Assembly (NCBI GenBank): GCA_001899145.1
Contig: MKVF01000030.1
Coordinates: 186,001-250,000, forward strand
Source: Flavobacteriia bacterium 40-80
GTDB taxonomy: Bacteria > Bacteroidota > Bacteroidia > Flavobacteriales_D > Crocinitomicaceae
DNA length: 64,000 bases
Direction of reading: 5' to 3'
How positions within the stretch are numbered: position 1 is the first letter of the stretch; the number at the start of each line of letters is the position of its first letter. Shown one piece after another: positions 1 to 31,042 of the stretch. Below the pieces are notes generated by a model. That model did no database searches. It had not been told where the DNA came from and was given only the letters and a program-made list of their open reading frames with translations. The position numbers and the translations under genes were made by a program.

Positions 1-67
1 AAAATCCCCGCTGACCGGAAACCATCGTAAATATCCCCAGAAAAAAGATAAGGAGAAGTGCTTTCAT
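1..67 (-). CDS. Partial exported protein (N-terminal signal peptide only)
   Basis: An ATG at 65-67 on the minus strand opens a frame that stays open to the window edge (22 codons visible). The residues are MKALLLIFFLGIFTMVSG followed by Gln, a typical signal peptide with a probable cleavage site. It begins 9 nt after the stop codon of the tail-collar protein gene, so it is very probably the fourth gene of the same operon. The mature protein lies outside the window, so no function can be given. Only this N-terminus is seen. Confidence 0.6.
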   Translation of the reverse strand, partial: MKALLLIFFLGIFTMVSGQRGF

Positions 68-76
68 AAACAGATG

Positions 77-1009
77 TTAAGGTAGTTTGATGATATAGGC
101 TAACACATAGTAAACCGGACGGTTATCAAATGGCTGTGCATTCAGGCCGTCTGATGTTCCGTCGCCGGTAGTTCCGGTATGACGGTGGGCACCTGCTCCA
201 GATGTTGAGACGTTTCCTGTATTTCCGGGATATCCTCTTACTACATCAGTACCTGTATTTCCCCCTGATTTTTGTTGTGAATCATAACCTATCAGGTGTG
301 AATGATTTCCGTCCTGAGAAAACGTACCTCCATCAGATCCTTCTCCGATAGTATGCTGATGTCTGGGTAAATTAGCTTTCTCCAGTGTTACTTGATTTGT
401 CCCGCTTGAGTTTCCGATTGTTGAATAATCAGTATTTGACGGATCATAACCGGCAATGAATTTTCCCCTTAGGTCTGGTTTGGGAAAGAATGTCATATTT
501 CCGTTTAGATTATAGATATAGAAGCTACCATCGCATAAAGCCCAACCTGACGGAATACTGGCAATGCTTCCGGACCACATAATAATTGCTCCGGTAGGTA
601 CAAGTGCATTACTACTGAATCCGGTTACATTAAGATTGGGGGTTTGTACTCTTCCGCTGTCTATGATAAGGTCGCCTTTTACTTTTGGAGAGACATCAGG
701 AGTATTATTGTTAGGATAGGAACTATTGGGATTTTCTTTAGGTAACAAGCCTACCCAGCGATTCCCGTCAAAATAATAAAAGATTTTTTCATCAGTATCA
801 AATACGAGGAGAGATGATGCCGGATTTGTAATGGATAATCTTTCCAGCCTGGATACCCGGGGAAGCAAAGCCCCTCTGACTTCGTTGGCGGGTGATTGAA
901 TATCTATAGCAGCGGTTTCATCCGGTGTCGCTGTATTGATTCCGATTTGAGCATTAAACACATTCAAGCAAAGAATGTTTCCTAAGATTCCTAAAACTAT
1001 CTTTTTCAT
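77..1009 (-). CDS. Exported protein with phage tail collar domain
   Basis: 310 residues with a signal peptide (about 1-20). Residues about 21-90 form the module common at the start of Bacteroidota tail-fibre-like surface proteins (GINTATPDETAAIDIQSP, then RGALLPR, then YYFDGNRWVG). Residues about 135-310 resemble the phage tail collar / short tail fibre fold: the PTGAIIMWSG start, SGWALCDG, PDLRGKFIAGYD, a His-rich LPRHQH...GNHSH...AHRHTG section and the terminal NRPVYYVLAYIIKLP. Such domains usually form trimeric receptor-binding tips; a cell-surface adhesin role is inference. The gene starts 2 nt after the stop of the FnIII gene, so they are cotranscribed. I see no T9SS sorting domain. Confidence 0.85.
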   Translation of the reverse strand: MKKIVLGILGNILCLNVFNAQIGINTATPDETAAIDIQSPANEVRGALLPRVSRLERLSITNPASSLLVFDTDEKIFYYFDGNRWVGLLPKENPNSSYPNNNTPDVSPKVKGDLIIDSGRVQTPNLNVTGFSSNALVPTGAIIMWSGSIASIPSGWALCDGSFYIYNLNGNMTFFPKPDLRGKFIAGYDPSNTDYSTIGNSSGTNQVTLEKANLPRHQHTIGEGSDGGTFSQDGNHSHLIGYDSQQKSGGNTGTDVVRGYPGNTGNVSTSGAGAHRHTGTTGDGTSDGLNAQPFDNRPVYYVLAYIIKLP

Positions 1010-1011
1010 AA

Positions 1012-3009
1012 TTATTTTTTTAGAGAGACTTTATGTTTATAAATTTCGCTTCTGTAAATATTTCCTTCCTTATCATAAATTCTGATTTGATATTCCATGT
1101 CTTTATCGGATAACAGATCAGAATCAGAAAATTTTCGTTCATGGCTGATATATTTGAGCACTTTAAATTCCCCGCCGCTCACTCTTCTGAAGAGTACTTT
1201 TTGGGCGATTTCCTGTTCTTCGAAATCCTGCTCATATTTCCACGCTAAGTGAAGCGTATTGATTTTTCTTGCATATTTTACTTTTGAAAAATGGACAGAA
1301 ATAGTACTTTCTTTCTTTTCCCGGGGAACTGATAATTTAAACTCATTGGAAGGCCGGGAACGGTTTCCTGCTTTGTCTGTAGCTATAAGCCGGTAAACAT
1401 ATTCGGTTCCTAGTTCATAATTTCTGTCAAAATACATATTAATATCCGGTGGAACCAACGTATGGTTTACCTGCTCAAAGATAGCTGCAGTATCTTTTAA
1501 CTTTTTTCTGAAGATGTTATAACCCAGCAAATCCAGCTCAGTATTTTTCACCCATTCAATCCTGATTTTCTGATTTTCCAGAATTATGTTTTTCAGGAAA
1601 GGTTCTCTCGGTGCAGTAATGTCTATCATAGAATTTGAGGCCAGAGCTGATAGCTTACTTTCGTTGAGATTAGTATCCAGGGATATGACAGCATAGCTGA
1701 ACTTGTTCATCGCATTTTTCGGCAGAGAGTCTATAAAGAAATTATCTTTAAACGGAGCAGCTGTTAATAAGCTCAGATTATTGATGTCATTTTCGATCGA
1801 TCTGTATATTTTATAACCTAACAGATCTTTCTCCTGGTTCGCCTTCCATTTGACAATCAGGCGGGCAGAGTCGCTTACAACAATAACATTTTCAGGAATT
1901 CCAGGAGGAATGAGGTCCAGTATTTCCACTACGACTTCATTGGAAAAAGCTTTGTTACCTTCTTCATCTACAGCTGCAACTGTTATAAAATAAAGCCCTT
2001 CATCAAAATTTTCCGCTTTGAAGGAAGAATCCTGGAAAAACAAGGTGGAATTTGTATTTAATGATTTTAACAGGGTATCATCCGGTGTTTTGTAATACAG
2101 CTTATATTCCCTGAAATCCTCTTCTTTTTCCTCTTTATACCATTTTAGGTCAACAGTCTTGCCATAGATCACCTTTCTCAGATGTACGGGAGCTGCGGGT
2201 AATGTTTCGTCTTTAATTCTGATTTTTATAGGTTCGGATGGTACTGTAGGCTGATTAAAAAAATCCAGTCCTACAAGCGTATAATAGTATGTGTGCTTTT
2301 CTTTCAGGAATTCATCGCTATAGAAAAAACGGGGATATTCACTTTTACCCTCTTGATTTTTCACTTTTGAAACTAAAATGGGATCCTTTGTGATTAATGC
2401 TCCTATCGAATCTTTTGAATCAGATCGGTATATATTTACACCGTAATAACTCAGGGGATCAGGTTTCCATCCAAAAGTAACACCCCGTCTTTTCTGATCG
2501 TAGTAAATGCTGTCTATTTTTGCAGAAGCTGTTTCTGCTCCAAAACGGATGGGTTTACTTACACCAAATATTTTTCCCGATTGATTTTCCAGCCTGTAGT
2601 AAAAAGTTTGCGGTTTCAGTTCAAGGTCATTGTCTGAATAATATATTCCCAAGTATTTTGATAACGGAAGACTTTTAAACGATTTTAGCGTTAATATAAG
2701 TTTGCTCAAATCTTCTAATTCCGTATTATTTTTAAGTATCTCTTTTAAATCGGACAGTTCATTATCTTCGTTCAGATCGGTGGAAGAGAAAGAATAGTCA
2801 AATCTTTTAATCGGGGCATTATTTAATTTTACCCAGTTGGAGGAATCAGTAGAACGATAAATATTTACACCTTCTTTTAAAATTAATTCAGGTGCGTACC
2901 ACTTCAGTTCAATACTGCTTTTATTGATTTTTGCAACAATCTGAACAGATTGGGAATAAACCACAGTAGTGCCTATAAAAAGTATTATTGCCAGTAGTTT
3001 ATTTATCAT
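1012..3009 (-). CDS. Exported multi-domain fibronectin type III protein
   Basis: 665 residues with a signal peptide (about 1-19, ending VVYSQ). The rest is a chain of FnIII-like beta-sandwich units, recognised by recurring patterns such as LKWYAPE, VNIYRS, YYYTLVGLD, LKWYKEE, KWKANQEKDLLGYKIYRS and EWVKNTELDLLGYNIFRK, about six units, each ending in a Tyr-rich strand. These modules normally mediate protein-protein or protein-glycan contacts outside the cell. The start codon overlaps the end of the upstream barrel gene by 11 nt and the stop is 2 nt from the tail-collar gene, so the three are one translational unit. There is no obvious enzyme domain and no C-terminal T9SS signal. Confidence 0.85.
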   Translation of the reverse strand: MINKLLAIILFIGTTVVYSQSVQIVAKINKSSIELKWYAPELILKEGVNIYRSTDSSNWVKLNNAPIKRFDYSFSSTDLNEDNELSDLKEILKNNTELEDLSKLILTLKSFKSLPLSKYLGIYYSDNDLELKPQTFYYRLENQSGKIFGVSKPIRFGAETASAKIDSIYYDQKRRGVTFGWKPDPLSYYGVNIYRSDSKDSIGALITKDPILVSKVKNQEGKSEYPRFFYSDEFLKEKHTYYYTLVGLDFFNQPTVPSEPIKIRIKDETLPAAPVHLRKVIYGKTVDLKWYKEEKEEDFREYKLYYKTPDDTLLKSLNTNSTLFFQDSSFKAENFDEGLYFITVAAVDEEGNKAFSNEVVVEILDLIPPGIPENVIVVSDSARLIVKWKANQEKDLLGYKIYRSIENDINNLSLLTAAPFKDNFFIDSLPKNAMNKFSYAVISLDTNLNESKLSALASNSMIDITAPREPFLKNIILENQKIRIEWVKNTELDLLGYNIFRKKLKDTAAIFEQVNHTLVPPDINMYFDRNYELGTEYVYRLIATDKAGNRSRPSNEFKLSVPREKKESTISVHFSKVKYARKINTLHLAWKYEQDFEEQEIAQKVLFRRVSGGEFKVLKYISHERKFSDSDLLSDKDMEYQIRIYDKEGNIYRSEIYKHKVSLKK

Positions 3010-4744
3010 TTTTCCGATTATTAATGTATGTTTTTATTTGTTTGTAACCCGTATTAAAATTGTAACTGTAGGTCAGAGTCATTCTGTTTTCAATAAAATC
3101 CTGCGCTCCTGAGGTGACTGCTTTTCTTTGAATAAATGCATAATTTATCCTGAAGCTTTGAGATTTTGTGATAGAGTAATTAATTCCTGCTACAATGGAA
3201 AAATTCTGATTTGTCAGCACTTTGTTTTGTTTAGCCTGCTGAAACGAAAAACTGGAATTCAGTTTTATTTTTTTATTCAGAAGAGAGCTGTTTATTCCAA
3301 AAGTCGGCCCCATGTTAAACAGCATTATTCCGGCAGTTTCATTTTGACTTATGTTCAGACCAAGAACAAAACCGATGTTCTGAGGCTGAAGCTGAATATT
3401 GTATCCGGGATTTATTAATACTAAAGTGTTTGTTTCCTGCTTGTTTCCTGAAGATTTTTGTAAAGTGGACTGAACGGAAAAAGTATGTCTGATATCTTTT
3501 CCCAAAGAATAATTCAACATTATGTTTCCGGTTTCATTCAGCTGAGCAAACCGGATAGAGTCATAGTAAATGTCATACAGGGCAACAACGTTACTGCTGA
3601 AATTAGAATAGGAGAGATTAATATTAAGATTTTTCACAACATTGATACCTACCATTAAACTTCCTGCAATTTTTCGTTGTGTTGCGATTTGTTTTTTGTC
3701 CAGGTTATTTTCCTGAAGACCTATGCTTCCGTTTAGCACTAATAAATTATTCTTAAAATTCTTTCCTAATGAAAGTGCGTATTCCTGAATATCATTTGCA
3801 ATGAATGGAGAGCCTAAACTGGCATAATCAGGATCTATCCGCTTAAATTTTGCACCGATTGTATATCCTTTCAGCTCATAATCTATTTGAAAATTATAGG
3901 CTGAATTGATTTGTGTATTAGCTCTGGGAGTAAAAATTTTATTCAGATATGTGAATTTTTCAAATTTTTGTTCCGGTAGAAAAGTGTTGGGATTTAGGAT
4001 ACTCAGATGGTAGCTCCCCTGAATTTTTAACTTCTCAAAAAAAGTATTACCAAACTGGACTCCGAAGATCTGATTTTCAGATGGTGAAATTCGATTTGCC
4101 GTATCAAAAGCAATTGAATTTTTATTGTCAAATCCATTGAAATAAATAAGCTCTATATGATGTTTTTCCTTTCCGATTCTTAATTTTGCAGCGCCTCCCC
4201 ATCTTTCATAGGCAGGGTAAGAAACCATCACGCCTTCCACTCCTCCCTTGGGGACTGCTTTCATTAATCTGCCGAATCCAACACTAGCCGATACAATTCC
4301 TTTTTCAGGTTTAATTTCTATTCCTCCTCCCAGGAATAATGTTCCATTCATGGTATAGTCGCTAAAATTCATGCTTCGATATCCCATATGCACCGTGAGC
4401 CACTTGTAATTGGGACTAAGGCCGAATTGGTTAAAAGGCTGACTGAATTTATCTAATCCATGAGTGAATTTTTTATCCTGCTGGGTAATTGTAAATGTTA
4501 AAGGACAACTTATTTTTCCTAATAATGTTATATTGAGATTAGAGTTTATACTCCAATAAAAAGGATCTCTTCGGGGGTCTATTCCTTTTACATTGTAAAA
4601 AACCGCACTGGCATTTATCCCTCCTTGCAGGGAAATAGGATCTTGCTTCAATAAACCTTTTGCGTCTTGTACAAGGCGTTCCACGTTTTGTGCAATAGCG
4701 GACTGGATCATGAAGCAGAGAAGTATAAGGGCGGTTTTAGACAA
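2999..4744 (-). CDS. Predicted outer-membrane beta-barrel protein
   Basis: 581 residues with a signal peptide (MSKTALILLCFMIQSAIA, cleavage before QN). From about residue 40 the sequence alternates hydrophobic and polar residues with frequent aromatic ends (INSNLNITLLG, VSASVGFGRLM, MLNYSLGKDI, RMTLTYSYNFN), as in large outer-membrane barrels. No known family name is certain. The only reasonable start is a TTG at 4742-4744, lying about 10 nt after a predicted transcription start (see promoter 4758-4790). As first gene of the operon with the FnIII and tail-collar proteins it could anchor or export them, which is inference from context. Confidence 0.75.
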   Translation of the reverse strand: MSKTALILLCFMIQSAIAQNVERLVQDAKGLLKQDPISLQGGINASAVFYNVKGIDPRRDPFYWSINSNLNITLLGKISCPLTFTITQQDKKFTHGLDKFSQPFNQFGLSPNYKWLTVHMGYRSMNFSDYTMNGTLFLGGGIEIKPEKGIVSASVGFGRLMKAVPKGGVEGVMVSYPAYERWGGAAKLRIGKEKHHIELIYFNGFDNKNSIAFDTANRISPSENQIFGVQFGNTFFEKLKIQGSYHLSILNPNTFLPEQKFEKFTYLNKIFTPRANTQINSAYNFQIDYELKGYTIGAKFKRIDPDYASLGSPFIANDIQEYALSLGKNFKNNLLVLNGSIGLQENNLDKKQIATQRKIAGSLMVGINVVKNLNINLSYSNFSSNVVALYDIYYDSIRFAQLNETGNIMLNYSLGKDIRHTFSVQSTLQKSSGNKQETNTLVLINPGYNIQLQPQNIGFVLGLNISQNETAGIMLFNMGPTFGINSSLLNKKIKLNSSFSFQQAKQNKVLTNQNFSIVAGINYSITKSQSFRINYAFIQRKAVTSGAQDFIENRMTLTYSYNFNTGYKQIKTYINNRKNDK

Positions 4745-5035: not shown

Positions 5036-6340
5036 ATGAAATTCGAAGAATTAAATCTGACAAAACCGCTTTTGAACGCGATCGAAGGCATGGGATATGA
5101 TACCCCGACATTGATTCAGGAAAAAGCATTCCCTGTGATCATGTCCGGAAAAGACATTCTGGGAATTGCCCAGACAGGAACAGGGAAAACCCTTGCGTAC
5201 CTGTTGCCATCCCTGCGTTTGTGGCAATTCGCTAAAAATCCCTATCCCCAGATTCTGATCATTGTTCCTACAAGAGAGCTTGTACAGCAGGTTTGTGATG
5301 AGCTGGCACGTCTTTCCATGTATATGAATGTAGTGACTGTAGGTGTTTACGGAGGCGCAAATATTCGTACACAGGCGGCTGAGATCTTGCAGGGAGTCGA
5401 TGTGGTGGTAGGCACGCCGGGGCGCGTTATGGATTTGATTCTTCACGGAGATTTAATTGTCAAAAATATTAAGAGACTGATCATTGATGAGGTCGATGAA
5501 ACGCTGAATCTGGGATTCAGGAAGCAGCTGACAACTATTTTAGACCTGCTCCCGGAGCGAAAGCAATCCCTGCTTTTCAGTGCGACAATGGATGAAGAAA
5601 TTGAAGCGATCATTGATGAATACTTCGTTTCCCCGACTTATGTGGAAGCAGCACCGTCAGGAACCCCGATTGAAAAAATTCAACAGCTGGTTTACGAAGT
5701 CCCTAATTATAATACGAAGCTAAATCTGCTTCACAAATTGTTGGATGATGAGGATTTAAAGAAAGTGCTGATTTTTACAGAGAGCAAAAAATATGCAGAT
5801 GCTCTTTTTGAAAAGCTCAAACTGAAATATGAAGAACGGGTGGATGTAATTCATTCGAACAAAGCTCAGAATTACCGTTTTAATGCGGTTAATAAGTTTA
5901 AAAGCGGTGAGCTGAAGATTCTTGTAGCGACAGATTTGGTTTCCAGAGGTATGGATATCAGCGAAGTAACGCATGTGATCAATCTGAATGTCCCGGTGAA
6001 GGAAGAAAATTATATCCATCGTATCGGTCGTACTGGTCGCCAGGAGAAAAAAGGAGTGGCGATTACGTTGGTTTCCGCTCTGGAAAAAGACAACTGGGAT
6101 GCCATTGAAAAATTTATCAATATGGAAGTCGAACGTTTGCCAATTCCTTCTGATGTGATTATTTCTGAAGAGCTGACGCTGGATGAGCAACCGGAAGTGA
6201 AAATGAAAAATGTTCTGGTAAAGCTTCCAAAGAGGGAAAATGTCGGTCCGTCATTCCATGAAAAAAAGCTCAAAAACCAAAAAGATAAAAAGAAGAACGT
6301 AAAGCCGAAGGATAAGAAAAAAATCAAAAAAAGAAGATAA
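5036..6340 (+). CDS. DEAD-box-family RNA helicase (RhlE/CshA-like), motif II DEVD
   Basis: 434 residues. ATP-dependent RNA unwinding is expected, in ribosome assembly or RNA turnover. The motifs are in order: Q motif near residues 3-30 (FEELNLTK...TLIQ), motif I AQTGTGKT (45-52), Ia PTREL (78-82), Ib TPGR (127-130), motif II DEVD (151-154), III SAT (182-184), and VI HRIGRTGR near 330. The tail from about residue 405 is Lys-rich, as in RNA-binding extensions of RhlE-type helicases. Motif II is DEVD instead of DEAD; the catalytic Asp and Glu remain, so activity is likely retained. A DUF4256 gene follows 16 nt downstream. Confidence 0.93.
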   Translation: MKFEELNLTKPLLNAIEGMGYDTPTLIQEKAFPVIMSGKDILGIAQTGTGKTLAYLLPSLRLWQFAKNPYPQILIIVPTRELVQQVCDELARLSMYMNVVTVGVYGGANIRTQAAEILQGVDVVVGTPGRVMDLILHGDLIVKNIKRLIIDEVDETLNLGFRKQLTTILDLLPERKQSLLFSATMDEEIEAIIDEYFVSPTYVEAAPSGTPIEKIQQLVYEVPNYNTKLNLLHKLLDDEDLKKVLIFTESKKYADALFEKLKLKYEERVDVIHSNKAQNYRFNAVNKFKSGELKILVATDLVSRGMDISEVTHVINLNVPVKEENYIHRIGRTGRQEKKGVAITLVSALEKDNWDAIEKFINMEVERLPIPSDVIISEELTLDEQPEVKMKNVLVKLPKRENVGPSFHEKKLKNQKDKKKNVKPKDKKKIKKRR

Positions 6341-6356
6341 TTTTTTGAAAGTTAAT

Positions 6357-6917
6357 ATGGCACAGAGAACAATATCTGAAAAAGACGGGGCAGAGCTGCT
6401 TAAGATTCTGAGAAAAAGATTCGAAGCGAATATGCCACGGCATAATAATCTTATATGGGACCTGATTGAGCCGAAGCTCAAAGCTCAGCCGGAGAAACTA
6501 TGGTCTCTGAATCAAATGGAGCTGACAGGCGGAGAGCCGGATGTGATTGGCTATAATGCTGAAAAAGACAGCTATATTTTTTATGATTGCTCTCCTGAAA
6601 GCCCGAAAGAGAGAAGAAGCTACTGTTACGACCGTCCGGCGCTTGAATCCAGAAAAAAATACCCACCGGAGAATAATGCGCTGGATGTTGCGGCTGCAAT
6701 GGGAATTTCTCTTTTAACCGAAGAGGAATACCGAAATTTACAGCAAACAGGCGCTTTTGATTTAAAAACTTCCAGCTGGATACAAACGCCCGAATCTGTC
6801 AGGAAGCTGGGTGGTGCGCTTTTTTGCGACAGACGTTACGATACCGTTTTCGTATATCATAACGGAGCGGATTCTTATTACAGCTCGCGAGGTTTCAGAG
6901 GGAAGCTTGAAATATGA
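6357..6917 (+). CDS. DUF4256 family protein
   Basis: 186 residues from the ATG at 6357; an in-frame TTG at 6345 would add four residues and is less likely. The sequence fits the DUF4256 family throughout: LLKILRKRFEANMPRH near the start, GGEPDVIGY, YDCSPESPKERRS, CYDRPALESRKK, LDVAAAMGI and the LGGALFCDRRYD-TVFVYHNGADSYY end. No signal peptide or membrane segment is present, so it is cytoplasmic. The family has no established function that I know of. It closely follows the helicase and probably shares its transcript. Confidence 0.85.
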   Translation: MAQRTISEKDGAELLKILRKRFEANMPRHNNLIWDLIEPKLKAQPEKLWSLNQMELTGGEPDVIGYNAEKDSYIFYDCSPESPKERRSYCYDRPALESRKKYPPENNALDVAAAMGISLLTEEEYRNLQQTGAFDLKTSSWIQTPESVRKLGGALFCDRRYDTVFVYHNGADSYYSSRGFRGKLEI

Positions 6918-7046
6918 TTTTTTCTGCAGCCGTTTTGATAGAATGACATCTTTATTCTCAGGATGCAACAGGCTGTTTTTGTAATGTAAAATCTTATTTC
7001 CGGATATCTGATCGTATTTTCCCATTTTCAATTGCGCATTTTTCAC

Positions 7047-7054
7047 TATATTTG
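7047..7054 (+). promoter_or_regulatory. Candidate -7 box for the fused E1 gene
   Basis: TATATTTG matches TAnnTTTG exactly and lies 19 nt before the ATG at 7074, giving a leader of roughly 15 nt. No matching -33 TTG is seen. Confidence 0.5.
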
Positions 7055-7073
7055 TGTACCTTAATCCAAAGTT

Positions 7074-9515
7074 ATGGCGAAAGAAGCAAGTGAATTAAAA
7101 TCCCCTCAAATAGACTTTGAAACATTTAAAGAAAGTGTTTTAAATGATTACAAACTGGTAAACCTTTCTCGTGAAACTTCCCTGCTCGGAAGACGCGAAG
7201 TGCTTACCGGAAAAGCCAAATTCGGTATTTTCGGTGACGGAAAAGAATTAGCGCAAATCGCGTTGGCAAAACAATTCAGAAACGGAGATTTCCGTTCCGG
7301 GTATTACCGTGATCAAACGTTGATGATGGCAATAGACCAGCTTACGGTAAAAGAATATTTCGCCGGCTTGTACGGACATACGGATGTTGAGCTGGAGCCG
7401 CAATCTGCGGGTCGTCAGATGGGCGGACATTTCTCTACCCGGAATCTGGATGAAAACGGAGAATGGAAAAACCTGATGGAGCAAAAAAACAGTTCCTCCG
7501 ATATTTCTCCGACAGCGGGGCAGATGCCGCGTTTGTTAGGATTGGCCCAAGCTTCAAAAGTATATCGTAATAATCCTGCACTTCAGAATGAAAAATTCAG
7601 CAAATTCTCTGACAGCGGAAATGAAGTCGCTTTTGGAACAATCGGAGATGCCAGCACATCGGAAGGCCCTTTCTGGGAAACGATGAATGCAGCAGGAGTC
7701 TTACAGGTGCCAATGGTAATGTCTGTATGGGATGATGGTTACGGAATTTCTGTTCCTCGTGAAAAACAAACGACAAAAGGAAGTATTTCCGAAGCACTGG
7801 CAGGTTTTCAGAGAACAGAAGACAAGCCGGGATTTGAGATCTTTGTGACAAAAGGATGGGACTACGTTGATTTGGTTCAGACGTATGAAAAAGCGGTTGC
7901 AATTGCCAGAGAACAGCACGTTCCCGTTCTTGTTCACGTCAAAGAGGTGAACCAGCCACAGGGGCATTCGACTTCCGGTTCTCATGAACGTTACAAATCG
8001 GAGGACCGACTGAAATGGGAAGGAGAATTTGACTGTATCGCGAAATTTAAGAAATGGATCCTTTCTTATGAAGCAGAAGGTCAGGTGATCGCTACTGCAG
8101 AAGAATTGGAAGCGATTGAAAAAGAAGCAAAAGTCACTGTCCGGAATGCTAAAAACGAAGCATGGAAAGATTTAACAGATAGCATCAAAGCGGACTTCAA
8201 TGAATGCGTCGATATTCTGAAAGCAGTTTCTGCTGAAACGAAACATAGTGAATTTGTTTCCGCTCAGGTGGAAGAATTGAAAAAAGCGCTGGAGCCTATC
8301 CGTAAAGACATTTTAAGTACGGCACGTCTGGTGCTTCGTACGATCGCCGGAGAAAATATTCAGAGTAAATCAATGCTGGCGGCATGGATTCAGTCCAAAA
8401 TTGAAGACAACAAAGAACGTTACAGTTCCTATTTATATTCAGAATCGGTTCAAAATATCCATAACATTTCATCTGTAGAACCGATTTACGATGAAAATGC
8501 AAAGATGGAGGACGGCCGTATCATTTTACGTGAAAACTTCCGTTCCATTTTTGAAAAATACCCGGAAACTTTGATTTTTGGAGAAGATGCCGGAAAAATC
8601 GGAGGCGTTAACCAGAGTTTGGAAGGCTTACAGGAAATTTTCGGCGAATTGCGTGTAAGCGATGTCGGTATCCGTGAATGTACAATTGTCGGACAAGGGA
8701 TCGGAATGGCGATGAGAGGACTCCGGCCGATCGCAGAAATTCAATACCTGGATTACCTGCTGTACTGTCTGCAGGTGATGTCGGATGATCTGGCGACCGT
8801 TCAGTACAGAACGAAAGGTGGTCAGAAAGCACCTTTAATTATTTCTACAAGAGGACACCGCCTTGAAGGAATCTGGCATTCAGGTTCTCCGATGGGAGCA
8901 ATTATAAATGCAGTACGTGGTATTCATGTCTGCGTTCCCCGGAATATGACAAAAGCAGCAGGCTTTTACAATACATTGATTGAAGGCGATGAGCCGGCAT
9001 TAGTGATCGAACCGCTGAACGGCTACAGAACAAAAGAAAAAATGCCGTCAAATATCGGTGAGTTTAAAATTCCGCTGGGAATTCCGGAAATTGTAAATCA
9101 AGGCTCCGATCTGACATTGGTTTCGTACGGATCGACATTCAATTTATGCAGCAAAGCTGTGGAACAGCTGAATGAGCTTGGAATCAATGTGGAATTGATA
9201 GACGTTCAGACACTGATACCTTTTGATATCAACCATACGATTTCAAAATCGTTAGCGAAAACGAACCGTTTACTGATTGTTGATGAAGATGTAAGCTCCG
9301 GAGCGACAGGCTATATTTTAGATAAGATCTTAGTAGAGCAGAACGGATATTACCATCTGGATTCAGCCCCTAAGACACTTTCGGCGAAAGATCACCGGCC
9401 TGCTTACGGAACAGACGGAGATTATTTCTCTAAACCAAGTATTGATGATATTGTTGAAAAAGTATATGAGATAATGCACGAAGCCGATCCGCAAAGATTT
9501 CCGGCTTTGTACTAA
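7074..9515 (+). CDS. Fused alpha/beta E1 component of a 2-oxoacid dehydrogenase complex (paralogue 1)
   Basis: 813 residues. Thiamine-diphosphate-dependent decarboxylation of a 2-oxo acid, most like branched-chain 2-oxoacid or pyruvate dehydrogenase E1. The alpha half (about 1-350) holds the ThDP motif from GDASTSEG to WDDGYG. A Lys/Glu-rich linker of about 120 residues follows. The beta half (about 475-813) has the GEDAGKIGG, RECTIVGQGIGMA and YLDYLL segments of the beta subunit. At the end of the ThDP motif Asp-Asp stands where many E1 proteins have Asn-Asn, which may affect metal binding. A second fused E1 of 697 residues is encoded at 47914-50007. No E2 or E3 gene is in the window. Confidence 0.9.
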   Translation: MAKEASELKSPQIDFETFKESVLNDYKLVNLSRETSLLGRREVLTGKAKFGIFGDGKELAQIALAKQFRNGDFRSGYYRDQTLMMAIDQLTVKEYFAGLYGHTDVELEPQSAGRQMGGHFSTRNLDENGEWKNLMEQKNSSSDISPTAGQMPRLLGLAQASKVYRNNPALQNEKFSKFSDSGNEVAFGTIGDASTSEGPFWETMNAAGVLQVPMVMSVWDDGYGISVPREKQTTKGSISEALAGFQRTEDKPGFEIFVTKGWDYVDLVQTYEKAVAIAREQHVPVLVHVKEVNQPQGHSTSGSHERYKSEDRLKWEGEFDCIAKFKKWILSYEAEGQVIATAEELEAIEKEAKVTVRNAKNEAWKDLTDSIKADFNECVDILKAVSAETKHSEFVSAQVEELKKALEPIRKDILSTARLVLRTIAGENIQSKSMLAAWIQSKIEDNKERYSSYLYSESVQNIHNISSVEPIYDENAKMEDGRIILRENFRSIFEKYPETLIFGEDAGKIGGVNQSLEGLQEIFGELRVSDVGIRECTIVGQGIGMAMRGLRPIAEIQYLDYLLYCLQVMSDDLATVQYRTKGGQKAPLIISTRGHRLEGIWHSGSPMGAIINAVRGIHVCVPRNMTKAAGFYNTLIEGDEPALVIEPLNGYRTKEKMPSNIGEFKIPLGIPEIVNQGSDLTLVSYGSTFNLCSKAVEQLNELGINVELIDVQTLIPFDINHTISKSLAKTNRLLIVDEDVSSGATGYILDKILVEQNGYYHLDSAPKTLSAKDHRPAYGTDGDYFSKPSIDDIVEKVYEIMHEADPQRFPALY

Positions 9516-28642: not shown

Positions 28643-31042
28643 ATGAAAAGAATTATACTTTTTACACTATTTACCGTACTTTTTTCTACAAAAATTTCTG
28701 CTGCTGTCTGGTATGTCAATATAAACGCAACCGGTGCAAACAACGGCACTTCATGGGCTGACGCCTATACAGATCTTCAGGATGGAATTGCAGCATCAGC
28801 TTTCGGAGATGAAATCTGGGTGGCTGCCGGAACATATAAGCCAACATCGACTACAGATCGGAATATTTCTTTTGCTGTTAAAAACGGTACAAAAGTCTAT
28901 GGTGGGTTTAACGGCACAGAAACTGTTTTAAGTGATAGAAATATAACTTTAAACGTAACTGTTTTAAGTGGGGAAATAGGTACGGGTGCAGCAAATGACA
29001 ATAGCTATCGTGTGGTACGTTTTAATAACGTTGCTAACCAAACAAGGTTGGATGGCTTTACTATTACAGGAGGATATAATAGCGTATCTATGAGTTATGG
29101 TGGTGGAATAGTTAGTGTTAATTCAAGTCCTGTTATTGCTAACTGCATTGTTATGGGGAATTTCGCAGCTGAAGGAGGAGGAGGATTAAATCACTCAGGT
29201 TCCGGAGCATTAACAATAGAAGGCTGTATTTTTGATGGTAATGTAGGTAATACTTATGGAGGAGGTGCTTTGCGTCTATATGCAGGACCTGTTAACATAT
29301 CTAATTGTTATTTTAAGTCTAATCAGAGCAATACTTATGGAGGAGCTATATTTGTGTATGGTGCATTAGTAAATATTACAAACAGTGTATTTGCCGGAAA
29401 TATAGCTCAGTCAACAGGAAGTGCTATTCGTATCGGAGATGTGGGTATATTTCATTTGAGTAACAGCCTTGTAGTAGGAAATTATACTAACGGAAATGAA
29501 GTGATATACGCTTCCACATTTTCTAACAGTGGTGAGCATACAATAAAAAACACCACCATAGCCCACAATAAGCAGGCAAACAGTAGCGGTGGCAGTAATC
29601 CAAGTGCAGTGGCATTAAATAAGCAGGCAAGCATTACTAATTCCATTATTTATGGCAACAGTAATTCTATTCAGGTTCTCGGGACGGGTTTAACTTTTTC
29701 TCATAATATCACGCAGAGTGCATCTAGCAGTGCTTCAGGAACAAATATACTTTATAAAGACCCGTTGTTTACTTTGTCTGGGGATGTAAATAACGCTCCG
29801 TTTGATACGACCGGCCTGAATTATCACGTATCCGTTCTTTCTCCGGGTATAGATTTCGGTCTGAATGCGAATGTACAGGGAACATCAGACTTAGCCGGAA
29901 ATCCGAGAATTCAGAATACGACAGTAGATTTGGGGGCTTATGAAGCCGGTTTCTGCGTTTCTCCTTTAACTTTGTCTCCCAGTGCACCGTATGTTATTTG
30001 TGGAGGCTCTCCCATTACATTAACTGTAAATAATGCCACTGATTATTTGTGGTCAACAGGAAGTACGAATAGTTCAATAACAGTATCGTCCGCCGGATCA
30101 TATTCTGTTATTTTTGAAGATGAGAATGGCTGCCGGGGAACGGCGCAGGCAACTGTTGCAAGCAGCTCGCTTCCCAACCCGGTGATTACTTTTTCAGGAG
30201 GTACCCTGAATGCCGGAAATTTTGCATCCTATCAATGGTATTTTAATGGAGTACCGATTTCGGGATCAACAAGTAATACACACGTCCCTCTGGAAGGTTA
30301 CGGTACTTATTCTGTAGATGTAACCAATAATGCAGGATGTTCCTCAACAGGGACTTTTTGTCTTTCACCAGCAAACCTTACAGCATCGGGCCCTGTTAGC
30401 TTTTGTCAGGGAGAATCTGTGACTTTAACTGTAAATAACGGAACAAACCAGGTGTGGTCAACAGGCTCCCTTGATTCCGAAATTACAGTATCGACATCAG
30501 GAACTTATTCTGTAACGGTATCAAATGTCGCGGCAGGATGTTCCGTAAATCTTCAGCAGGCTGTAACTGTCAATAACAATCCTGCTCCGGTAATTAACCT
30601 TTCCGGAGGGAATCTTACAACACAATCTTATGCGTCTTACCAATGGAATTATAATGGTACTCCCATTTCGGGAGCAACTTCTCAAACGCTAATTCCGACA
30701 GAAAACGGTGAATATACTGTCACTGTTACAAATGCTTCAGGATGTACAGGGACCTCACAGGTGTACAATCTTGATAATGTTGGTTTAGAAAACATAACAG
30801 AAGATGCGTTTTTGTTTTATCCTAATCCTGTAAAGAGTAATGGAACTTTGAATTTCTCCTGGGGAAAACAATATACGGGAAAAGCATATTTCCGGATATA
30901 TGACCTGACAGGAGCTGTGGTTTTTGATCTTCGATCTGAAGAATTTCCTGAATCTATTGTTCTTCCGGATTTAAAATCGGGAGTCTATTTTATAGATATT
31001 GAATCTCTTCAGAATAGAAGATTAAAGTTGATTATCCTTTAA
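28643..31042 (+). CDS. T9SS-exported beta-helix and Ig-like repeat surface protein
   Basis: 799 residues. Signal peptide about 1-20 (TKISAA). Residues about 22-430 form a parallel beta-helix of the pectate-lyase/choice-of-anchor type: WYVNINATGANNGTSWADAY, IWVAAGTYKP, LDGFTITGG, repeated GGGG and NSS turns, ending NPRIQNTTVDLGAYE. Residues about 435-710 hold two Ig-like/PKD-type repeats of about 130 residues with matching LTVNN...WSTGS and SYQW...NG motifs. The last about 75 residues are a type A T9SS sorting domain (FYPNPVKSNGTL...DLKSGVYFIDIE). It is secreted across the outer membrane by T9SS. The ligand is unknown. Own promoter at 28601. Confidence 0.9.
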   Translation: MKRIILFTLFTVLFSTKISAAVWYVNINATGANNGTSWADAYTDLQDGIAASAFGDEIWVAAGTYKPTSTTDRNISFAVKNGTKVYGGFNGTETVLSDRNITLNVTVLSGEIGTGAANDNSYRVVRFNNVANQTRLDGFTITGGYNSVSMSYGGGIVSVNSSPVIANCIVMGNFAAEGGGGLNHSGSGALTIEGCIFDGNVGNTYGGGALRLYAGPVNISNCYFKSNQSNTYGGAIFVYGALVNITNSVFAGNIAQSTGSAIRIGDVGIFHLSNSLVVGNYTNGNEVIYASTFSNSGEHTIKNTTIAHNKQANSSGGSNPSAVALNKQASITNSIIYGNSNSIQVLGTGLTFSHNITQSASSSASGTNILYKDPLFTLSGDVNNAPFDTTGLNYHVSVLSPGIDFGLNANVQGTSDLAGNPRIQNTTVDLGAYEAGFCVSPLTLSPSAPYVICGGSPITLTVNNATDYLWSTGSTNSSITVSSAGSYSVIFEDENGCRGTAQATVASSSLPNPVITFSGGTLNAGNFASYQWYFNGVPISGSTSNTHVPLEGYGTYSVDVTNNAGCSSTGTFCLSPANLTASGPVSFCQGESVTLTVNNGTNQVWSTGSLDSEITVSTSGTYSVTVSNVAAGCSVNLQQAVTVNNNPAPVINLSGGNLTTQSYASYQWNYNGTPISGATSQTLIPTENGEYTVTVTNASGCTGTSQVYNLDNVGLENITEDAFLFYPNPVKSNGTLNFSWGKQYTGKAYFRIYDLTGAVVFDLRSEEFPESIVLPDLKSGVYFIDIESLQNRRLKLIIL

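What the first reader, a model, noticed from the sequence alone, without database searches (positions are those of the whole stretch)
1..4744. Exported phage-tail-collar protein in a tight operon with an outer-membrane barrel and a FnIII protein
Seen: the barrel, FnIII and tail-collar genes overlap or are separated by 2 nt, a fourth exported gene starts 9 nt later, and one good promoter precedes the set. All four have signal peptides. Known: tail-collar folds usually tip phage fibres and contact receptors. Inference: the operon builds a cell-surface adhesive or display structure in which the barrel is the outer-membrane anchor, the FnIII protein a stalk and the collar protein a tip. No phage structural gene is nearby, so it does not look like a prophage. 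This is the best candidate for an undescribed surface system here.
Basis: partly seen in the sequence, partly recalled or inferred. Interest (0 to 1): 0.6.

Follow-up and report, generated by a model that had tools for sequence, protein, structure and literature searches.

The report
Front end of surface toxin-apparatus operon
The three exported genes at the window's edge are the first part of a ten-gene operon that probably builds a cell-surface apparatus with a large outer-membrane barrel, which in this bacterium appears to carry a toxin, and whose core recurs in many Bacteroidota.

Summary
The genes are real and correctly placed, but the window cuts their operon. It has ten near-abutting genes over about 23 kb: barrel (BAR), FnIII, collar, a T9SS-tailed PKD protein, a PorP/SprF carrier, a second T9SS-tailed PKD protein, a 1,722-aa TANFOR-type giant (TANF), a 305-aa protein, a 1,030-aa protein with a zinc-peptidase motif and an unrecognised tip, and a small possible immunity gene. 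TANFOR proteins are a published class of polymorphic toxins with Fn3, PKD and T9SS-tail neighbours. New here: BAR, which has no Pfam or NCBIfam family, is a near-constant partner. In one barrel scan (best 80 of 232 loci kept) TANF directly follows it in 72 of 79, and FnIII follows in 52 of 56 testable ones. BAR models as a barrel of about 25 strands, nearest in fold to MtrB and pilus ushers. The surface-structure idea is partly right; anchor, stalk and tip roles are untested. Likeliest: a T9SS-linked surface apparatus that here carries a toxin. Most loci show no such toxin protein in the stretch held, so toxin delivery may be an add-on. Export through BAR is inference.

The parts
2999..4744 (-). 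Gene 1, BAR: 581-aa predicted outer-membrane beta-barrel of about 25 strands
   Evidence: ORF; no Pfam/NCBIfam family for it, only isolated weak ones among 65 homologues; AlphaFold2 pLDDT 85.6, pTM 0.75, 25 strands of 8 or more residues; VIA best MtrB 6r2q_B Z 18.3, 447 residues, rmsd 5.4
1012..3009 (-). Gene 2, FN3: 665-aa exported fibronectin type III protein, no T9SS tail found
   Evidence: Pfam fn3 36.8 bits; homologue within three genes after TANF in 52 of 56 testable loci
77..1009 (-). Gene 3, COL: 310-aa exported protein with a phage tail-collar C-terminal half
   Evidence: Pfam Collar 27.6 bits; PHROG 1800 E 1.3e-22 over residues 117-309
1..67 (-). Start of gene 4, PKDa: 1,433-aa PKD protein with T9SS type-A tail; the rest lies outside the window (L003:5766-10067 = window -4234..67). 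Following genes, all minus strand: gene 5 PorP/SprF carrier L003:4263-5762; gene 6 PKDb with type-B tail L003:943-4287; gene 7 TANF 1,722 aa L002:5777-10945; gene 8, 305 aa, L002:4847-5764; gene 9, peptidase-motif protein 1,030 aa, L002:1742-4834; gene 10, 108 aa, L002:1414-1740 (window position = L003 position - 10000 = L002 position - 19999)
   Evidence: gaps between successive genes 1 to 10 are -25 to +12 nt

Best explanation
[quoted passage not shown] SHOWN by sequence: gene content and order, T9SS tails on two PKD proteins, a PorP/SprF carrier beside the type-B one, a TANFOR-type giant, a protein with a zinc-peptidase motif in a domain shared with TANFOR toxin-like proteins and followed by a tip unrelated to theirs, and recurrence of the BAR-TANF-FN3 core. 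INFERRED mechanism: Sec exports the parts to the periplasm; BAR, a wide outer-membrane barrel, and the TANFOR giant form an outer-membrane platform, with BAR as anchor or conduit; FN3 bridges; PKDb is exported by T9SS and held by PorP/SprF, whose SPOR-like domain would tie it to peptidoglycan; PKDa is exported by T9SS with the collar protein beside it as binding tip; the gene 9 protein docks on the platform, its peptidase domain frees the tip on contact with a rival cell, and gene 10 protects the producer. Membership in the TANFOR toxin neighbourhood: about 0.8. Platform/toxin-carrier role: about 0.55. BAR as actual conduit: about 0.3.
For: Operon continuity. Gene 4 Por_Secre_tail 36 bits, gene 5 PorP_SprF 109 bits, gene 6 CHU_C 83 bits, all over cut-off. 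Gene 7: TIGR02542 E 4.6e-8; BLAST-related over about residues 1-300 to TANFOR toxin-like proteins and over about 1-940 to tip-less TANFs. Gene 9 residues 320-508 belong to a domain found in 16 proteins of these loci; 16 of 16 have HExxHG, 15 of 16 also the following LxH (G072_004 has WEH). The domain is related in 120 of 120 pairs (partly by construction, as the set was gathered by it), the last 150 residues in 2 of 120: the polymorphic-toxin pattern. A same-strand gene of 108-362 aa within 25 nt follows 11 of the 15 that have a following gene. TANF directly after BAR in 72 of 79 loci, FN3 in 52 of 56 testable; median gaps 3 and 4 nt. The closest relative, L158, holds homologues of genes 1-7 and 9 in another order, with collar and PKDa on the opposite strand. 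SprA, the T9SS translocon gene, is present in the genome, 507 bits, with 89 Por_Secre_tail matches. Of 8 carriers, 4 have an OmpA domain over cut-off and 3 a SPOR match below cut-off.
Against: The peptidase-toxin domain was found in 16 of 142 neighbourhoods (21+41+80, a few duplicated), and in only 3 of the 80 named ones; the stretches held are limited (10 kb on each side at most for the named loci) and tips without this domain would be missed, but toxins are not shown to be a constant part. TIGR02542 score of gene 7 is 33 bits against a cut-off of 67. The tip of gene 9 and gene 10 match no Pfam family; in 395 class genomes (own included) each has only itself plus 1 and 2 weak hits, and the two opened look like chance. 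BAR lacks TANF directly after it in 7 of 79 loci and in 8 of the first 21 places, against 8 with it. No complex was modelled; no activity is known.
Confidence: 0.58

Rival explanations
1. A surface adhesion or display structure without toxin function at its core: BAR-TANF-FN3 is an outer-membrane platform for T9SS-exported adhesive fibres with collar or SprB-like tips, and toxins are occasional passengers.
For: 126 of 142 neighbourhoods show no peptidase-toxin domain in the stretch held; G060, G066a, G067 and G234a carry BAR-TANF-FN3-collar with tip-less TANF and no such domain nearby; the slot between FN3 and PKDa holds collar genes in some genomes and SprB-like genes in others.
Against: This operon itself ends in a toxin-like protein and a possible immunity gene 1 nt apart, and the closest relative L158 has the same kind of peptidase protein followed closely by a 231-aa gene.
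Confidence: 0.27
2. A gliding or SprB-type motility adhesin operon: PKDb with PorP/SprF is a mobile adhesin pair and the other genes are accessory.
For: PorP/SprF next to a type-B tail protein, as for SprF-SprB (PMC12635249, section 6 read).
Against: The Cys-X-Cys tail that links SprF to the gliding track in that paper is absent in 8 of 8 carriers looked at; 4 of these have an OmpA domain and 3 a weak SPOR match instead, which predicts fixed anchoring.
Confidence: 0.07
3. BAR is a nutrient or polysaccharide channel (AlgE- or OprD-like) unrelated in function to its neighbours.
For: AlgE Z 15.8 over 297 residues and OprD-family channels score high in the fold comparison.
Against: Those align about half the model, MtrB 447 and the ushers PapC/FimD 372 of 581; the tight linkage to TANF (72 of 79) is hard to explain.
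Confidence: 0.05
4. Relics of a prophage or a contractile injection system.
For: Collar domain truly related to phage tail fibres; the FnIII protein also has PHROG matches (virion structural protein, central tail fiber J) through its fn3 region.
Against: No sheath, tube, baseplate or head family in genes 1-9 or gene 10; genes 1-9 start with signal-like stretches by eye; neighbours at 5036-9515 are a DEAD-box helicase-like and a dehydrogenase-like gene (my reading).
Confidence: 0.02

Closest known systems
TANFOR polymorphic toxins of Bacteroidetes (Jana, Salomon, Bosis 2020, PMC7073777)
   Same: Exported TANFOR-type N-terminus, variable C-terminal tips, possible downstream immunity genes, toxin sometimes encoded in a separate gene, neighbourhood rich in Fn3, PKD and T9SS-tail proteins
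   Different: Here the TANFOR-type protein has no tip; the toxin candidate is two genes on and has no detectable TANFOR region. The barrel, the collar proteins, the PorP/SprF carriers and the zinc-peptidase domain are not mentioned in that paper's main text (word searches; its supplements were not open to me)
SprB-SprF of Flavobacterium gliding motility
   Same: T9SS type-B tail protein encoded beside a PorP/SprF carrier
   Different: Carriers here lack the Cys-X-Cys track link (8 of 8) and mostly have peptidoglycan-binding-type domains; extra barrel, TANFOR and toxin-like genes
Chaperone-usher pili (PapC, FimD)
   Same: Barrel of similar size; 372 residues aligned, Z 14.5 and 14.1
   Different: No chaperone or pilin family in the operon; no sequence relation to any solved structure found
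MtrB of the MtrCAB electron conduit
   Same: Best overall fold match, Z 18.3, 447 of 581 residues: a barrel wide enough to hold another protein (that last point recalled)
   Different: No cytochrome family in the operon, no MtrB-type Pfam match
Phage tail collar fibres (PF07484, PHROG 1800)
   Same: C-terminal half of COL
   Different: Carries a signal-like start and a Bacteroidota-type N-terminus; sits among T9SS substrates

Membership tests
TANFOR polymorphic toxin system | TANFOR (TIGR02542) domain at the N-terminus of an exported protein | tested here: inconclusive
   Gene 7: E 4.6e-8 but 33 bits against a cut-off of 67; 0 of 296 phylum genomes reach that cut-off and 9 match at E <= 0.001, own included; gene 7 is BLAST-related over residues 5-293 to G278_001, the protein at a TIGR02542 match
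TANFOR polymorphic toxin system | Conserved body with unrelated C-terminal tips | tested here: met
   For the peptidase-bearing family that includes gene 9: 120 of 120 pairs related in the body domain used to gather them, 2 of 120 in the last 150 residues
TANFOR polymorphic toxin system | Recognisable toxin domain and cognate immunity gene | tested here: inconclusive
   No Pfam family for the gene 9 tip or gene 10; in 395 genomes, own included, only chance-like hits besides themselves, one of three not opened; gene 10 starts 1 nt after gene 9
TANFOR polymorphic toxin system | T9SS-tail, Fn3 and PKD proteins in the neighbourhood | tested here: met
   Genes 2, 4 and 6
TANFOR polymorphic toxin system | Toxic activity neutralised by the next gene | not testable with these tools
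   Needs expression
T9SS type-B substrate with PorP/SprF carrier | CHU_C/type-B tail beside PorP_SprF | tested here: met
   CHU_C 83.3 bits, TIGR04131 47.4 bits, PorP_SprF 109.3 bits, all over cut-off; genes overlap by 25 nt
Gliding-motility SprF | Cys-X-Cys motif in the C-terminal tail | tested here: not met
   0 of 8 carriers
Phage tail collar domain | PF07484 over its cut-off | tested here: met
   27.6 bits against 24
Phage tail or contractile injection system | Sheath, tube or baseplate genes in the unit | tested here: not met
   None among genes 1-9 and gene 10; the one below-cut-off baseplate match (Gp10_C, 21.4 bits against 27) is the collar protein itself
Chaperone-usher system | Periplasmic chaperone and pilin genes | tested here: not met
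   No such Pfam match among genes 1-9 and gene 10, apart from a below-cut-off TcfC match in a PKD protein (12.7 bits against 29.4)
MtrB/PioB | Multihaem cytochrome partner and MtrB family match | tested here: not met
   No such match in genes 1-9, gene 10, or 65 BAR homologues

The most novel reading that the evidence does not exclude
BAR, the TANFOR giant and FN3 form a dedicated outer-membrane export and presentation machine of the Bacteroidota: a roughly 25-strand barrel passes or sheathes the giant protein, which itself lacks a recognised T9SS tail (gene 7; four homologues), and so puts toxins or adhesive tips on the surface by a route partly separate from the T9SS translocon.
Probability: 0.27. 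Interest if true: 0.85.

Novelty: new variant of a known kind. Interest (0 to 1): 0.58.

Why it matters
How TANFOR toxins leave the cell was left open in 2020, with T9SS as the authors' guess. A barrel that Pfam and NCBIfam do not name, and that a domain-enrichment analysis would therefore probably not see, is the usual neighbour of TANFOR-type proteins. That gives a concrete gene to delete and a concrete complex to isolate, and suggests that a multi-part surface platform, shared by toxin and non-toxin versions, lies behind these loci.

Tried and rejected
Searched for the barrel as a known family: Pfam, NCBIfam and PHROGs for the window protein, Pfam and NCBIfam for 65 homologues (only isolated weak hits in 1-2 members each), PDB sequences with a profile (none at E <= 0.1). 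Rejected as PorP/SprF: a separate gene in the same operon is that family.

Toxin tip and gene 10: looked for relatives in 395 class genomes, own included. Besides themselves: one weak hit for the tip, two for gene 10. The tip's hit and one of gene 10's turned out, by my reading of the ORFs, to be a BNR-like protein and an RlmH-like protein; I call them chance. L246, gene 10's other hit, was not opened.

TANF model (L204 residues 262-1461, 16 sequences): mean pLDDT 70, pTM 0.45, too weak to lean on. Its last 450 or so residues resemble outer-membrane barrels (MtrB Z 13.2 over 321 residues at 7.8 A, PapC 11.9; Foldseek's best E 9e-6 with TM about 0.1). Not used as evidence; it could mean that tip-less TANFs end in a membrane sheet, or nothing.

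T9SS-tail test by a crude motif: 28 of 87 large same-strand genes in the barrel's run against 10 of 104 large genes outside it. It missed gene 6 of this very operon, whose type-B tail Pfam finds, so it is only a rough sign.

Selection and rows dropped. One search kept the best 80 of 232 loci that encode a relative; its query A3 was made of five barrels, three of them (G067, G066a, G234a; also G325) from loci with TANF next, so the scan favours that branch. The 62 G-handle neighbourhoods are 21 places and 41 of the stronger places, not all. In one search, L201 gave no BAR ORF and is not in the 79; FN3 was tested only where TANF directly follows BAR and ends more than 600 bases before the locus end (56), the collar only where 300 bases remained after FN3 (28). 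The 107 and 58 gaps include the duplicate loci L171 (= G066a) and L179 (= G060), which drops. In one search the body region of three proteins was taken from a weaker sub-match (80 of 120 pairs); one search repeats it with the best match (120 of 120). A4 uses 65 of 78 possible sequences (77 listed plus the window).

Paper searches: 30 of 1,070 listed, nearly all on the name Tanford; 0; 0; 10 of 24 listed. None of the listed titles or abstract beginnings describes a barrel-TANFOR-FnIII module. The library lacks most subscription journals and all preprints, and supplements could not be opened, so this is no proof that it is unpublished. Passages only were seen of PMC11205867, PMC12419801 and PMC9870892. 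The genus of the window was not determined.
Full report
OBSERVATION. The minus-strand genes are as described: barrel 2999-4744, FnIII 1012-3009 (11-nt overlap), collar 77-1009 (2-nt gap), and a fourth start at 67 (9-nt gap). The promoter is not above chance. The window lies at G000:C30:186001-250000 in a 3.52-Mb, 99.7% complete assembly, so the sequence past position 1 could be read.

WHAT LIES BEYOND. The run continues without a break: gene 4, 1,433 aa, PKD repeats and a T9SS type-A tail; gene 5, 499 aa, PorP/SprF with a below-cut-off SPOR match; gene 6, 1,114 aa, PKD repeats and a type-B tail; gene 7, 1,722 aa, TANFOR match below cut-off; gene 8, 305 aa, called HEAT-like only on a very weak match (E 0.14); gene 9, 1,030 aa, reprolysin-like match just below cut-off; gene 10, 108 aa. 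Gaps between neighbours in genes 1-10 are -25 to +12 nt. Small ORFs follow. The genome has the T9SS translocon gene SprA and 89 Por_Secre_tail matches.

RECURRENCE. A barrel search hit 20 of 79 relatives at E <= 0.001, own genome included. A barrel profile hit 122 of 296 genomes across the phylum, own included, many of them weakly; by my count of the listed rows 56 have a match over 150 bits. TIGR02542 matched 9 of those 296 (own included), all also barrel-positive; in 7 of the 9 a match lies within about 12.5 kb of a barrel match (my reading; not in G284 and G323). One scan of named genomes gave 232 loci, of which the best 80 were kept, from Spirosoma, Dyadobacter, Runella, Larkinella, Marivirga, Pedobacter, Olivibacter, Flavobacteriales and Ignavibacteria among others. 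The query held only barrels, but barrels mostly from TANF-bearing loci. With at least 300 bases after the barrel, a TANF-family gene follows directly in 72 of 79; where testable, FN3 is within the next three genes in 52 of 56; a collar gene comes directly after FN3 in 6 of 28. Median gaps are 3 nt (BAR-TANF, n=107, G-handle and named loci together) and 4 nt (TANF-FN3, n=58).

Against it: 7 of 79 lack TANF next. Of the first 21 places, 8 have TANF directly after the barrel (G067, G066a, G060, G004, G073, G037, G053, G072), 8 have something else (G022, G019, G011, G046, G050, G057, G062, G075), 4 stop at a contig end (G066b, G003, G051, G041), and G000 has FN3 next. The 41 places show the same pattern with exceptions (for example G284, G355 and G244) and were not counted.

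Order varies while the set stays. L158, the closest named relative (44% barrel identity), holds homologues of genes 1-7 and 9: carrier, PKDb, BAR, FN3, peptidase protein, a 231-aa gene and TANF on one strand, collar plus PKDa divergently. G060 and G066a have BAR-TANF-FN3-collar (3 and 2 copies)-PKDa-PKDb-carrier; G234a has BAR-TANF-FN3-collar-PKDa. In G000, G060, G066a, G234a and L158 a collar gene is followed directly by PKDa (in L158 PKDa is cut by the locus end). In L159, L180, L198 and L204 the gene after the collar gene is cut and unidentified; in L176 and L177 a collar gene sits just before BAR; L174 has a separate group of four. In G298, G103, G099 and G321 the slot between FN3 and PKDa holds 391-571-aa proteins; the three of G298 that were tested have SprB-repeat matches below cut-off. 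This looks like an exchangeable tip slot (inference).

TOXIN PART. Gene 9 residues 320-508 belong to a domain found in 16 proteins of these loci; 16 of 16 have HExxHG and 15 of 16 a following LxH. In 14 of the 16 the protein also matches the TANF profile; gene 9 and L158's homologue do not, so these two look like toxin halves split from the TANFOR part. The domain is related in 120 of 120 pairs, partly because the set was gathered by it; the last 150 residues are related in 2 of 120. Eleven of 15 with a following gene have a same-strand gene of 108-362 aa within 25 nt. This is the pattern of polymorphic toxins. The published analysis already reports toxins encoded apart from TANFOR. The tip of gene 9 and gene 10 are unrecognised, so 'toxin' and 'immunity' are assigned by architecture. 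The domain was found in 16 of 142 neighbourhoods and only 3 of the 80 named ones (L158, L170, L190), so the barrel-TANF-FN3 core is not a toxin system by definition. Two homologues of gene 8 lie just beyond the toxin-like TANF and its following small gene in Marivirga L170.

BARREL. AlphaFold2 on 65 sequences gives pLDDT 85.6 and pTM 0.75 with 25 strands of 8 or more residues, so about 24-26 in the wall. VIA ranks MtrB first (Z 18.3, 447 residues, rmsd 5.4), AlgE 15.8 over 297, PapC 14.5 and FimD 14.1 over 372. Foldseek's list mixes S-layer barrels, ushers, TonB receptors and T9SS translocon chains with low TM-scores. A shared fold shows no function; the size would fit a barrel that can hold a polypeptide (inference).

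CARRIER. Type-B-tail proteins bind PorP/SprF (review PMC11205867, passage seen). In F. johnsoniae SprF a Cys-X-Cys tail is needed for normal contact with the gliding track (PMC12635249, section 6 read). That motif is absent in 8 of 8 carriers here; 4 have an OmpA domain over cut-off, 3 a SPOR match below cut-off, 1 neither. Fixed anchoring to peptidoglycan is predicted.

LITERATURE. Jana, Salomon and Bosis 2020 (PMC7073777; sections 6 and 9 read, word searches of the main text, supplements not open) describe TANFOR toxins and report Fn3, PKD, SprB and Por_Secre_tail enriched nearby, proposing T9SS export. The main text has no word beginning with 'collar', 'SprF', 'barrel', 'peptidase', 'protease' or 'reprolysin'. 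Another predicted toxin family tied to T9SS components is mentioned in PMC12419801 (passages seen). No listed result of my searches describes the module.

VERDICT. A new variant of a known kind: the front end of a TANFOR-associated operon, with an unnamed and highly constant barrel partner. Which of 'toxin-carrying apparatus' and 'adhesive platform with optional toxin' is primary stays open.

Noticed in passing
L002:319-1413 (about window -19680 to -18586): Several small ORFs (41-158 aa, same strand) follow gene 10 and could be orphan toxin tips or immunity genes, as is common at polymorphic-toxin loci.
   Followed up: no
L101:3559-6015, L107:13998-16442: Barrel homologues of one family (G258, G298) carry a C-terminal extension of about 250 residues after the barrel, probably periplasmic and helical by eye.
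   Followed up: no
L170:17298-18538: Two neighbouring ORFs in Marivirga arenosa are related to gene 8 and sit just beyond a TANFOR toxin-like gene, so gene 8 may be a recurrent partner.
   Followed up: partly
L098-L100 (G274:C1:803789-863788): A block of about 8.5 kb with ORFs of matching lengths and starts (137, 132, 864, 293, 100, 398 aa) occurs twice in tandem between a short and a longer barrel ORF.
   Followed up: no
window 30818-31036: A Por_Secre_tail match (41.8 bits, 801-aa frame, plus strand) marks another T9SS substrate inside the window.
   Followed up: no
L204:14623-15984: The C-terminal 450 or so residues of a tip-less TANF model weakly as an outer-membrane-barrel-like sheet (low confidence).
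   Followed up: partly
L174:1-6062: A group of four collar genes on the opposite strand lies a few kb upstream of a barrel-TANF-FN3 set.
   Followed up: no
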